NCBI GenBank assembly: GCA_905250025.1
Contig: CAJNOJ010000022.1
Coordinates: 496,087 to 560,086, forward strand
DNA length: 64,000 bases
DNA from: Adineta ricciae
Taxonomy: Eukaryota; Rotifera; Eurotatoria; Adinetida; Adinetidae
Direction of reading: 5' to 3'
Positions 1,434-5,688 of this stretch are shown piece by piece. Below the pieces are notes generated by a model that worked only from the letters and a program-made list of their open reading frames with translations, was not told the DNA's origin and ran no database searches. The translations under genes and the position numbers were made by a program. The stretch's first letter is position 1. Each line of letters starts with the position of its first letter.

Positions 1434-4400
1434 ATGTTGAGTCCAAGTCGTTCATCTGCACAAGCAATTCTGAAAACAGTGGTCACTACTGCATCAACAG
1501 TAATTCAAGAAAATGCGAGTACGAGTGTCGAGCATAAAGAAGAATTGAATGATGCTGATGACAGTGAACCATTGAAGAAAAAATTCAAAGATGATTCAGA
1601 AACTGAAGTAAGAGGTCATTTTGAAGCAATACGATCTTTCATATTGACTTTAAATCTAAGGTGGAGAGTTCATTAGCAACGACAACTACCACTCACGTTC
1701 GACAACGGCTACCGAAGAAACGGAAAGCGTGTGTTTCATTTGGATACTGTGGTATGCTTCACATTTGATGGATAACTATTCAGATTTGGTTTACACTTTT
1801 GATTAGGTGCTGGTTATTTCGGGCTTCAACGGTAAATCAGCATGGAATTTGATTAAACTTATCGTGTTCAGAACTTTTGCTTTCGTAGAAATGCAAAAGA
1901 TAAAGTCCATCGAACTATTGAAGATGAATTGGTCGAAGCTTTCGTCAAAGTTGGTGCCATTCCACAAGCTCATGCTGATGATATGTCCAAGGTATTTTTC
2001 TCCTTATGAAGTGTCCAAATTTGATTGAATTCGCGATTGAATTTAGATGGCATTTCAACGAGCAGCTCGAACCGATAAAGGTGTATCTGCTGTTGCTAAT
2101 CTCGTCTCATTGAAACTAGTTCCTATGGACAATCTCACCAAATTAGTCAATGAACAATTACCCAAACAAATCCGAATGTTCGGTACGGTGAAAACGATGA
2201 TTTTCTTTGAAATAATGTTTAGTTTAGGTGTGAAACGTGTTGCTGCTAGTTTCAATAGCAAAAATAGTTGTGATGCACGGACATATATCTATATTCTACC
2301 AACATATGCGTTTTGTCCAGTTGAAGAGGTTCGAAGTCGTCTTGGAAAGAACTATATTTTCATTTTTGCTATTCTATTTTTTAGATTACAAAAGAATCGT
2401 ACCGAGTGACACGTATGTAAAGGGAATCGTGTGAAGATATCTTTGGTCTTTCGGTTGAATGCTTTCAGAGAAATTTCTTGTGCTAAATATTAAAATGAAA
2501 CAAGCAAGAGGGAACTGATGAATAAGGATGAGAACTTGAGCGATCGAAAAGACAACAGCTATATAATCATAATAAGAACCAAAGTTTGATTGATGAGAAA
2601 CATGTTGAATCCGACGAAGAGTAAAGAAAGTTCTCACCAGGAAAAAAGAAAAGTAGATGAATAATTGACATATTTTTCATAATTTCCATGACGTAAATAT
2701 CAAAGAAGCAAAACAATTAACAAGATAAAATAACTGTATCCTAAAAGTAGATATGGAAGAGCAGATTTATTCGAACATTTATTCAAGCATAGTATAGAGA
2801 AAATGCATGTTAATAAGGCAATAATTATCAGAATCGACCACCAAAGACAATGACTGACATGTTTTTTGTTGTTGACTATGTTTGGCGCTATGAAATGATT
2901 TTCTTTCTATCTTCTAGCTGAAGTACTACAGTTGGCTAAAGATGTAGCAAGTGAATATCTTGGCTCTCATAATTTTCATAATTTCACATCGGGCAAAAAG
3001 TTCACCGATCCATCAGCTCGAAGACATATCTTGACCATCAATGTAAATCTATTTGAATGATGTTCGAAGAAGAAAGGAATCGCTTGTTTTCTTGTATTCA
3101 GATAGCTGATCCCTACATAAGAGAAGATGTGGAGTTTACAACGATTACTATCAAAGGACAAAGCTTCATGTTGCATCAAATTCGAAAAATGATCAGTAAG
3201 TGAATATGAAAGACGAATGTAATCAGACCAATTCATTTCTTTGTAGGTCTTATTATCGCTATTGTTCGTGGCATCGCCAGTCGAGATACAATTCAACGAG
3301 CGTATAACGCTGATAAAGTATGACAGTGAGGATTGCTGGAGATGATGAATAAAAAAATAAAACATCGTTTGTAGATCGATATTCCTAAAGCACCACCACT
3401 TGGACTTGTGCTTCAAAAAGTGAGTGTAGTTTTATTCGTGTCGTGTTCATATGTACAATGGTCGTTATTGCCTTCTAGCTTCATTACGATCGATATGATA
3501 AGAAATTTGGAAGTGATGGTCAACATGATGCACTAACTTGGAATGAAGTTGAAGTAAATCGATTTGACTCGAATATGTGATCAGTAGTTGCTTGTTTTTA
3601 GAATGAAGTTAACAATTTCAAAGAAGAAACCATCATTCCACACATTGTGAAAAGAGAAATCGCCGACAAATCGTATCCTTTTTTTCATATATGAAAAGTT
3701 TGGTGCAAAAGAGAGGGAGAAGGGTTTCATATTTCTGCTTATAGCTCAGTTTTTATATTTCCTTGACTTTGACTTCACTTCCTGTTGACCAGTATGTTGG
3801 CATATTTGGAGCGATTGATTGTTCATTCATTCTCTCCGATGGATAGCGAGACCGACTGGCGTTTTTCACTTCCCTATCAGATCATTTTTCAAAAAGTGAG
3901 AACAAAACTAAATTCTATGGTAAGATTCATTTATTAATATTTGAAACTTCTACACTCGACACACAGCTTTTCCCCACCGTTTACATATCCATATTTCTTG
4001 TTCGTCTTTGTTTCTCCTTAACTTTCATGTTTTCATCAGTATGTTTTCATGGCTTTTTTTCGGGCCGATGCTTTCACGTTACGAACATAGCAGTCCATAT
4101 TTCTCCATCGTGACTTATATTATTCCCACATTACTCGGACGTCTGCGTCACTTGCCTTTCGTTGAAAAGATGCTTGAAAACGCTTTGATATATGAGGTAT
4201 GTATATTCTTTTTCGCCCATCTTCCTATTGTATGTGTGTGAGAGAATCAGTTCTATTCGTGAATATGTTTTTCCTTGACTCTCGAAAATCTCAGTATGTT
4301 CAAATGGCTTGCATTTTTACCATGCCATCATTTCGATCAACTTTTACCGTTTTATCCTCCCGGAGCATACACTGGTGTCGGTCGAGGATTGTATCTCTTA

Positions 4401-4560
4401 CAGCAGCAACAGGGAAAGTCCGCGAAGGTATATGTTTGTCACGATACGTTTTGAAATCAATCAATCAATCGAATCATTGACACTAACACATATCTATAAA
4501 TTTGCTTTTTTCCTTTAGTTGGACGAAGAAGAAGACGAGGACAATGGTGTTGAAGAATAG
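1434..4560 (+). CDS. PUS1: tRNA pseudouridine synthase 1 (TruA family) with alternative 3' exons
   Basis: PUS1 isomerises uridines in tRNA and some mRNAs in nucleus and mitochondria. The product reads from an acidic leader into [15 protein letters not shown], the catalytic motif [11 protein letters not shown] (Asp nucleophile), [33 protein letters not shown] and [15 protein letters not shown], all TruA/PUS1 signatures. Exons: 1434-1607, 1661-1751, 1807-1831, 1889-1991, 2047-2182, 2228-2328, 2385-2412, 2918-3042, 3102-3195, 3247-3317, 3375-3419, 3479-3553, 3602-3672, then one of three alternative exons (3793-3895, 4040-4196, 4295-4427), then 4519-4560. With the third alternative exon the lengths sum to 438 codons, i.e. 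437 aa. The last exon encodes an acidic tail ending DNGVEE. The start is the ATG at 1434 within an open frame; the 506-bp intron 7 is the only long intron. Confidence 0.95.
3793..4427 (+). other. PUS1: Cluster of three mutually exclusive PUS1 C-terminal exons
   Basis: Three consecutive exons follow the same upstream exon, which ends with two bases of a Ser codon at 3672. A is 3793-3895, B is 4040-4196, C is 4295-4427. Each starts with T-ATG after an AG acceptor and encodes S-M-x-x-(Y/W)-L..., the B and C starts being [10 protein letters not shown] and [10 protein letters not shown]. Lengths are 103, 157 and 133 nt, all 1 mod 3, and each ends in phase 0 at a GT donor, so each alone joins the last exon (4519) in frame while any two together shift the frame. 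Each acceptor has a similar upstream CTTGACT/CTTAACT branch-like motif. C matches the conserved PUS1 tail best. Confidence 0.75.
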
Positions 4561-4759: not shown

Positions 4760-5688
4760 ATGGATCTGGTCTTGAATATCTATGATCAGTGGCTATTAAC
4801 TCCATATGTATATCCGAAAGAAGGTTGGCCGGAAGACAGTCTTCTTCGACAAATCGTTTCGTTGGCCATTTTGATCAATATTCATGGAATTCTGCTCTAT
4901 TTCTTTTTGGGAACGTTTAGTTATTTGTTTTTATTTGACAAAAAACAAATGGAACATCCTCTGTTTCTCAAAGTACGTCTCATTGATAAAGAATGCAGTT
5001 TATGTCGTTATGCAACAAAAAATTGTATGCTTCTCTAGAATCAAATTCGGCAAGAAATCAAAGTTTCATTACAAAACATTCCATTTATGAGTATTCCAAC
5101 GATCATTGTTTTCCTATTTGAAATACGTGGATATTCCCGATTGTACGACAGTTCACAGCGTTCATACGGTATGTAGATAATGATTCATTCTCTTGTTACC
5201 ATTAAGTCTCTTCTTTACACATAGGTTTGATTCCATTTCTGAAAGAATTCGGCAGTTTTCTATTCTTCACCGATATGTTGATCTATTTCATTCATCGCGG
5301 TTTACATCATCCTCTTGTTTATAAACATTGTCATAAACTTCATCACAAATGGATCGTTCCAACACCTTTCGCCAGTCATGCATTTCAATGGCTCGATGGT
5401 TTTCTTCAAAGTTTACCATACCATCTTTATGTTTTCTTATTTCCGCTACATAAAATATCGTATTTATTCTTTTTCATTTTCGTTAATTTTTGGACAGTTA
5501 GCATTCATGATGGAAACTATGCAGTACCAAAACTATTTCAACCGTTCGTTAATGGCGCAGCTCACCATTCCGATCACCATCAATATTATAATTATAATTA
5601 TGGCCAGTTTTTCACGTTTTGGGATCGACTCATGTGCTCGTTTCGCCAACCGTCCGTGTACGATGATGAGAAGAAAAACATTGACTAA
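4760..5688 (+). CDS. SC5D: Delta7-sterol C5(6)-desaturase (lathosterol oxidase), fatty acid hydroxylase superfamily
   Basis: An ER membrane di-iron oxidase that introduces the C5-C6 double bond in sterols. Exons 4760-4972, 5039-5168 and 5225-5688 give 268 aa, close to the family's usual 270-300. All three histidine clusters are visible in exon 3: HRGLHH, HKLHH and HSDHH followed by [15 protein letters not shown], the typical C-terminal signature. Hydrophobic segments occur in exon 1 ([17 protein letters not shown]), exon 2 ([12 protein letters not shown]) and exon 3 ([17 protein letters not shown]). It starts 200 bp after the PUS1 stop on the same strand. A polyadenylation signal AATAAA lies at 5780-5785. 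It could in principle act on another sterol or lipid; animals differ in whether they make or only modify dietary sterols. Confidence 0.92.

What the first reader, a model, noticed from the sequence alone, without database searches (positions are those of the whole stretch)
3793..4427. Triplicated, mutually exclusive C-terminal exons in PUS1
Three successive exons of 103, 157 and 133 nt each start T-ATG after an AG acceptor, encode related starts ([22 protein letters not shown]), and each joins the same upstream (ends mid-Ser at 3672) and downstream (4519) exons in frame. Using any two together breaks the frame, so phase alone enforces exclusivity. Alternative C-termini of a tRNA pseudouridine synthase could change substrate choice or localisation. 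I know of no such cluster in PUS1. A and B are more diverged than C and could be decaying copies.
Basis: partly seen in the sequence, partly recalled or inferred. Interest (0 to 1): 0.72.

Follow-up and report, generated by a model that had tools for sequence, protein, structure and literature searches.

The report
PUS1 triple-exon switch at minor intron
In one animal-like genome the RNA-modifying enzyme PUS1 has three alternative versions of its last helix, and the splice signals suggest that two incompatible splicing machines force the cell to pick exactly one.

Summary
The three exons are real features at the stated coordinates. Each is open and in phase, and each lies inside a PUS1 gene (human PUS1 match E = 3.1e-107), the only copy found in the assembly.

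The shared upstream donor (3673) is a perfect minor-spliceosome (U12-type) site, GTATCCTTT, the only RTATCCTTT in the window. All three acceptors are preceded by the U12 branch-point core TCCTTRAC, whose only three + strand occurrences in 64 kb are these. The donors of A, B and C and the final acceptor look major (U2) type. The upstream exon can therefore join A, B or C, but these cannot join one another. The genome encodes U11, U12, U4atac and U6atac.

Frame does not enforce exclusivity: A+C and B+C shift frame, but stop in the last exon. Exon A resembles the human PUS1 C-terminal helix and exon B resembles exon C.

Nearest known cases are JNK/MAPK8-9 and TMEM87A/B. A 2018 paper calls this mechanism limited to exactly two exons (passage); here there are three. 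Splicing and function are untested: no RNA reads or relatives were available.

The parts
1434..4560 (+). PUS1 gene. Exons 1434-1607, 1661-1751, 1807-1831, 1889-1991, 2047-2177 (or 2182), 2223 (or 2228)-2328, 2385-2412, 2918-3042, 3102-3195, 3247-3317, 3375-3419, 3479-3553, 3602-3672, then A or B or C, then 4519-4560
   Evidence: Chosen from 64 stop-free combinations of nearby GT/AG sites by agreement with human PUS1 (9h51 E=3.1e-107; PF01416). 2177/2223 against 2182/2228 is unresolved; the former gives IRILG as in human. An earlier hand model had sites off by a base or so and was dropped.
3602..3672 (+). Constitutive exon before the cluster, ends mid-Ser (phase 2)
3673..3681 (+). U12-type 5' splice site GTATCCTTT
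   Evidence: Only RTATCCTTT in the window, either strand; the 15 other donors of the gene model have 1-6 mismatches to RTATCCTT
3759..3767 (+). U12 branch-point sequence of exon A, TTCCTTGAC (branch A 26 nt before the intron end)
3793..3895 (+). Exon [37 protein letters not shown]2-like donor gtgaga
4015..4022 (+). U12 branch-point sequence of exon B, TCCTTAAC (branch A 18 nt before the intron end)
4040..4196 (+). Exon [55 protein letters not shown]2-like donor gtatgt
4271..4279 (+). U12 branch-point sequence of exon C, TTCCTTGAC (branch A 16 nt before the intron end)
4295..4427 (+). Exon [47 protein letters not shown]2-like donor gtatat; probable default exon
   Evidence: Best match to human PUS1 and the only one of the three whose codon usage stands out from open noncoding windows
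4519..4560 (+). Shared last exon [17 protein letters not shown], behind a U2-like acceptor (gcttttttcctttag, 3 mismatches to TCCTTRAC)

Best explanation
A U12-type (minor) intron near the 3' end of PUS1 has one U12 donor and three alternative U12 acceptors, each opening a duplicated, diverged version of the C-terminal exon. Each of these exons closes with a U2-type donor that can only be joined to the single U2-type acceptor of the last exon. Since a U2 donor is not paired with a U12 acceptor, A cannot be joined to B or C, nor B to C. Since the U12 donor is not paired with the U2 acceptor, the set cannot be skipped. The result is exactly one of three exons. This gives three PUS1 proteins that share the catalytic core and acidic tail but differ in the end of the C-terminal helix and the segment after it. 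Shown here: sequence, frames, splice-site motifs, presence of minor snRNAs, and similarity of A (to the human helix) and B (to C). Inferred: that all three are spliced, that class incompatibility is the enforcer, that C is the default, and that the isoforms differ in RNA choice or partners.
For: GTATCCTTT donor at 3673, the only RTATCCTTT in the window. TCCTTRAC occurs at 3760, 4015 and 4272 and nowhere else on the + strand of 64 kb (2 copies on the minus strand). Background: 5 TCCTTRAC and 2 GTATCCTTT in 400 kb (both strands of 200 kb); 0 of 61 background AG|TATG sites have the branch motif, against 3 of 24 on the window's + strand, which are exactly A, B and C. The 13 other acceptors of the gene model have 2-4 mismatches. 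U12 (2 loci), U6atac (2), U11 (2) and U4atac (1) are above the Rfam cut-offs. All three exons are class 2-0 and open. A versus the human helix: 0 of 3992 background frames score as high; B versus C: 1 of 3992; A versus C: 6 of 3992. The starts of B and C, and of A and B, also show as direct repeats (85% over 20 nt, 79% over 19 nt). Introns A-B (144 nt) and B-C (98 nt) are longer than 11 of the 12 introns upstream (45-59 nt; the other is 505 nt), so steric exclusion is unlikely.
Against: No RNA evidence and no relatives. Codon usage does not separate A or B from open noncoding windows. Exon A's branch point lies 26 nt from the intron end, farther than those of B (18) and C (16) and, as I recall, beyond the usual U12 range. 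I saw no similarity of A or B to known PUS1 after about 16 residues. A-C DNA alignment finds nothing beyond the 11-nt branch motif (137 of 300 shuffles score as high); A-B residues are not significantly alike (permutation p 0.38); B against human is weak (57 of 3992 as high). Only A and C have the nine-letter TTCCTTRAC. In 200 kb of the same genome I found no convincing second U12 intron as a positive control. [quoted passage not shown]
Confidence: 0.78

Rival explanations
1. Only exon C is used; A and B are decaying duplicates of the intron end plus exon, with leftover U12 branch sites.
For: Codon usage of A and B is indistinguishable from open noncoding sequence. A's branch-to-AG distance is long (26 nt). 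Similarity ends after about 16 residues.
Against: The copies are much diverged, yet in both the 8-nt branch core, AG, T-ATG, an open frame of 34 or 52 codons, phase and a GT donor persist. Open windows of that size are 12% and 3.7% of noncoding windows (2411 and 743 of 20000 draws, with replacement, from the gene's introns and nearby spacers), before phase and splice sites are asked for. A keeps H, F and S of the human helix; C has lost the S and B all three.
Confidence: 0.15
2. The exons are mutually exclusive, but exclusion is by reading frame and nonsense-mediated decay, not by splice-site class.
For: All three lengths are 1 mod 3; A+B and A+B+C put a stop upstream of the last junction.
Against: A+C and B+C stop inside the last exon and would escape junction-dependent decay. 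Frame cannot explain three U12 branch sites behind one U12 donor.
Confidence: 0.04
3. Competing RNA secondary structures (docking site and selectors), or steric closeness, enforce the choice.
For: Seven inverted-repeat pairs were listed in 3673-4518, for example 10 nt perfect 3812-3821 with 4462-4471.
Against: No shared docking site with a selector before each exon is among those pairs. Introns of 98 and 144 nt are ample where 45-59 nt introns are normal.
Confidence: 0.03

Closest known systems
JNK / MAPK8-MAPK9 exons 6a/6b (7a/7b)
   Same: Alternative exons kept mutually exclusive by mixing U2 and U12 splice sites (passages in PMC3584512 and PMC8329584)
   Different: There the U2 intron comes first: two U2 3' sites and two U12 5' sites, two exons. 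Here the U12 intron comes first: one U12 5' site, three U12 3' sites, three U2 5' sites, and three exons. Different gene, and at the C-terminus.
TMEM87A/TMEM87B exons 11/11a
   Same: Mutually exclusive exons around a minor intron, tissue-dependent (passages in PMC6717393 and PMC8329584)
   Different: Two exons, one lying inside the minor intron, in a JNK-like order.
Human MXE clusters with U2/U12 incompatibility (PMC5740500, 2017)
   Same: Same mechanism class; 5 of 629 clusters (section 7 read)
   Different: Gene names and cluster sizes are in an appendix that I did not see. A 2018 paper (PMC6071210, passage) calls the mechanism limited to clusters of exactly two exons; this one has three.
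Drosophila prospero and dUrp overlapping U12/U2 introns (twintrons)
   Same: Competing U12 and U2 splice sites in one place (passage in PMC3584512)
   Different: Overlapping introns, not tandem duplicated exons.
PUS1 of other eukaryotes
   Same: Same enzyme and C-terminal helical extension, proposed to block TruA-like dimerisation (PMC3983220, abstract and passages)
   Different: No C-terminal mutually exclusive exons were found in print by the searches (listings and abstract openings only).

Membership tests
U12-type intron | 5' splice site RTATCCTT (consensus recalled) | tested here: met
   GTATCCTTT at 3673, exact, the only RTATCCTTT in the window
U12-type intron | Branch point TTCCTTRAC a short way before the acceptor (consensus recalled) | tested here: met
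   Core TCCTTRAC before each of A, B, C; the 9-letter form in A and C only. Branch A to intron end 26, 18 and 16 nt; A is longer than usual
U12-type intron | Host has a minor spliceosome | tested here: met
   U11, U12, U4atac, U6atac above gathering scores; minor-spliceosome proteins not searched
U12-type intron | Excised by the minor spliceosome | not testable with these tools
   Needs RNA from U12- or U6atac-depleted cells or a reporter
Mutually exclusive exon cluster | Tandem homologous exons with the same phases | tested here: met
   All class 2-0; A like the human helix, B like C; A-B residues not significant (p 0.38)
Mutually exclusive exon cluster | Junction reads show one and only one exon per transcript | not testable with these tools
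   No RNA reads available
Spliceosome-incompatibility MXE | Exons flanked by one U12 and one U2 site so that they cannot join each other | tested here: met
   U12-like acceptors; donors with 3-6 mismatches to RTATCCTT; final acceptor 3 mismatches to the branch core. By motif only.
Spliceosome-incompatibility MXE | Cluster of exactly two exons, as stated in PMC6071210 | tested here: not met
   Three exons
PUS1 (eukaryotic TruA-family pseudouridine synthase) | TruA-family catalytic domain and C-terminal helical extension | tested here: met
   Match to human PUS1 through [15 protein letters not shown] of exon C, E=3.1e-107, including ARTDKG; PF01416 71.5 bits. Activity not tested.

The most novel reading that the evidence does not exclude
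A single minor intron acts as a three-way selector that can in principle be extended to any number of exons. Because only the minor spliceosome can make the first join, isoform choice of PUS1, an enzyme that in other eukaryotes also modifies spliceosomal RNAs (recalled), could respond to minor-spliceosome activity and form a feedback loop. The minor intron would be kept because it makes the three-way choice error-proof.
Probability: 0.12. Interest if true: 0.85.

Novelty: new variant of a known kind. Interest (0 to 1): 0.64.

Why it matters
Spliceosome incompatibility was described as a solution limited to clusters of exactly two exons (PMC6071210, passage). One U12 donor, three U12 acceptors, three U2 donors and one U2 acceptor form an arrangement with no such limit. 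It would show that a minor intron can serve as a multi-way exon selector, which bears directly on why these rare introns persist. It would also be a case of an RNA-modifying enzyme with three alternative ends to the C-terminal helical extension that sets it apart from bacterial TruA.

Tried and rejected
Chance frames: rejected by residue matches and U12 signals. Exon B as part of another gene or a transposon: its three weak genome hits (E 0.03-0.2, L023-L025) look like chance, and two of the three hold a stop; exon A has no other hit. A second PUS1 copy or allele for comparison: none found by DNA or protein; the two other protein hits (C56, C74, 28% identity, E 0.024) are distant family members. 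Structured RNA in the window: no Rfam match at gathering score, no tRNA. Competing RNA pairing: nothing convincing. Relatives in viral contigs: none. Codon usage: not decisive for A and B. A scan of 200 kb for other U12 introns gave one weak candidate (C1 +; none on -) against 0 and 2 in the reversed controls, so no positive control. phmmer E-values of A- and B-containing C-termini against human PUS1 (3.9e-11, 1.5e-9) rest mostly on the shared upstream 49 residues, and I ran no control without the exon, so I do not count them. Two more papers on exon duplication and MXE prediction (PMC9013439, PMC3228551) gave no occurrence of the terms sought. Identifying the organism: the TGTGGG repeat was uninformative because its control is a rotation of itself; no arthropod cuticle domain was found, but that search had no positive control.

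Full report
What is there. The window's first 4.6 kb hold a PUS1 gene, the only copy that DNA and protein searches of the assembly found (these searches score only their best candidates). The spliced protein, with exon C, matches human PUS1 from the catalytic domain into the C-terminal helix (9h51, E = 3.1e-107) and Pfam PF01416. After the exon ending at 3672 come three candidate exons, A 3793-3895, B 4040-4196 and C 4295-4427, followed by a last exon at 4519. Each candidate begins T-ATG after AG, completes the split serine codon, is open in that frame, ends on a whole codon before GT, and joins the last exon in frame.

The donor at 3673 reads GTATCCTTT, which fits the U12-type 5' splice site consensus exactly, and is the only RTATCCTTT in the window. 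The core of the U12 branch-point consensus, TCCTTRAC, occurs on the + strand of 64 kb exactly three times, at 3760, 4015 and 4272, each just upstream of the acceptor of A, B or C (two further copies lie on the minus strand). The nine-letter form TTCCTTRAC fits A and C; B has CTCCTTAAC. In 400 kb of background (both strands of 200 kb of contig C1) the core occurs 5 times and GTATCCTTT twice. Of 24 AG|TATG sites on the window's + strand, 3 have the branch motif within the preceding 40 nt, namely A, B and C; of 61 background sites, none. Of the gene model's 16 acceptors the other 13 have 2-4 mismatches, and of its 16 donors the other 15 have 1-6 mismatches to RTATCCTT (all). The single donor with one mismatch (1751, gtatgctt) leads to an acceptor with three mismatches. 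The consensus letters are recalled, and I noticed the motifs by eye before counting; the counted 8-letter core is the part shared by all three. That the 5' site and branch point define U12 introns is stated in PMC3584512 (passages).

The machine exists. The genome encodes U12 (2 loci), U6atac (2), U11 (2) and U4atac (1), over the Rfam cut-offs; the same four searches ring in 0 of the 14 control genomes. In the alignments U12 keeps GUAAGGAA, complementary to UUCCUU-AC, and U6atac keeps AAAGGAGAGA. A scan of 200 kb for further U12 introns gave one weak candidate on one strand and none on the other, against 0 and 2 in the reversed controls, so I have no second intron as a positive control and no count for the genome.

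How it most likely works. U12 and U2 splice sites are generally incompatible (PMC3584512, passage). The upstream exon can therefore reach A, B or C but not the last exon, and A, B and C can reach the last exon but not each other. Exactly one is used, whatever their number. Steric exclusion is unlikely, because the introns between the exons are 144 and 98 nt while 11 of the gene's 12 upstream introns are 45-59 nt. No convincing docking-selector pairing was found.

Are A and B real? For: ungapped over 14 residues after SM, A scores 25 against the human helix (5 identities), a level reached by 0 of 3992 open ATG-led 15-mers of background; A against C, 6 of 3992; B against C, 1 of 3992; B against human, 57 of 3992. 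B and C align as DNA over about 95 nt including the branch site (score 23; maximum of 300 mononucleotide shuffles 20), and exon starts show as short direct repeats. Against: A-C DNA gives only the 11-nt branch motif (137 of 300 shuffles as high), A-B DNA is weak (10 of 300) and A-B residues are not significant (p 0.38). Codon-usage scores of A and B, though the best of six frames, are matched by 810 of 2411 and 86 of 743 open noncoding windows, whereas C is matched by 0 of 1192 (windows drawn with replacement from the gene's introns and nearby spacers). A's branch adenosine is 26 nt from the intron end against 18 and 16. The survival of splicing signals, frame and phase despite such divergence argues for selection, but only RNA or relatives can settle it. 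My reading is that C is the default and A and B are regulated alternatives.

What the switch would change. The alternative exons begin at the human SMAQWLST...IHNFS segment, near the end of the C-terminal extension. In human PUS1 that extension, about 35 residues folding into helices on the face opposite the active site, covers the surface by which bacterial TruA dimerises, and its authors propose that it is responsible for atypical RNA substrate binding (PMC3983220, abstract and passages). [quoted passage not shown] A cited paper's title (Czudnochowski et al. 2013, seen only in reference lists; the paper was not held) links the helical insert to target selectivity. In yeast Pus1 the C-terminal helical region shows no significant clash with a docked tRNA (PMC10631681, passages). 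A change of substrate, partner or localisation is therefore plausible and untested.

Comparison with the known. JNK (MAPK8/9) and TMEM87A/B use mixed U2/U12 sites for two mutually exclusive exons, with the U2 intron first (passages). A survey of human clusters found 5 of 629 with U2/U12 incompatibility (section 7 of PMC5740500); I did not see its appendix. PMC6071210 (passage) calls the mechanism limited to clusters of exactly two exons. The PUS1 cluster has three, in the mirror order. Searches of the held library for PUS1 with mutually exclusive exons (8 of 8 papers listed), with U12-type (3 of 3) and with alternatively spliced C-terminal isoforms (5 of 5), and for U12-linked mutually exclusive or duplicated exons (11 of 11, 5 of 5, 20 of 27, 15 of 85 and 12 of 13 listed), showed no such case; I judged most of these from titles and abstract openings. 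Verdict: a new variant of a known kind.

Limits. The assembly keeps some loci twice at 93-96% identity, but PUS1 was found once. [quoted passage not shown] I could not tell whether this genome belongs to any of them.

Noticed in passing
window 2178-2227: Intron 5 of PUS1 can be drawn in two in-frame ways (2177/2223 giving IRILG as in human, or 2182/2228 giving IRMFG).
   Followed up: partly
window 2413-2917: One PUS1 intron is 505 nt while the 11 others upstream of the cluster are 45-59 nt; its content was not studied beyond the Rfam scan of the window, which found nothing.
   Followed up: no
window 3985-3994: ATATCCATAT in the A-B intron resembles a U12 donor 55 nt before exon B's first base; perhaps a remnant of a duplicated U12 intron start.
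   Followed up: no
L027/L028, L029/L030, L001/L002, L003/L004: Four loci occur twice at 93-96% identity over stretches of up to about 3 kb, as if diverged haplotypes were kept apart in the assembly.
   Followed up: partly
G000 C60:297331 and C60:343494: Two U11 snRNA loci on one contig and strand, 46 kb apart.
   Followed up: no
window 4760-5688: A gene resembling a sterol desaturase/fatty acid hydroxylase (name recalled from its histidine motifs, not searched in Pfam) starts about 200 nt after PUS1 on the same strand; other genome matches are about 30-34% identical.
   Followed up: partly
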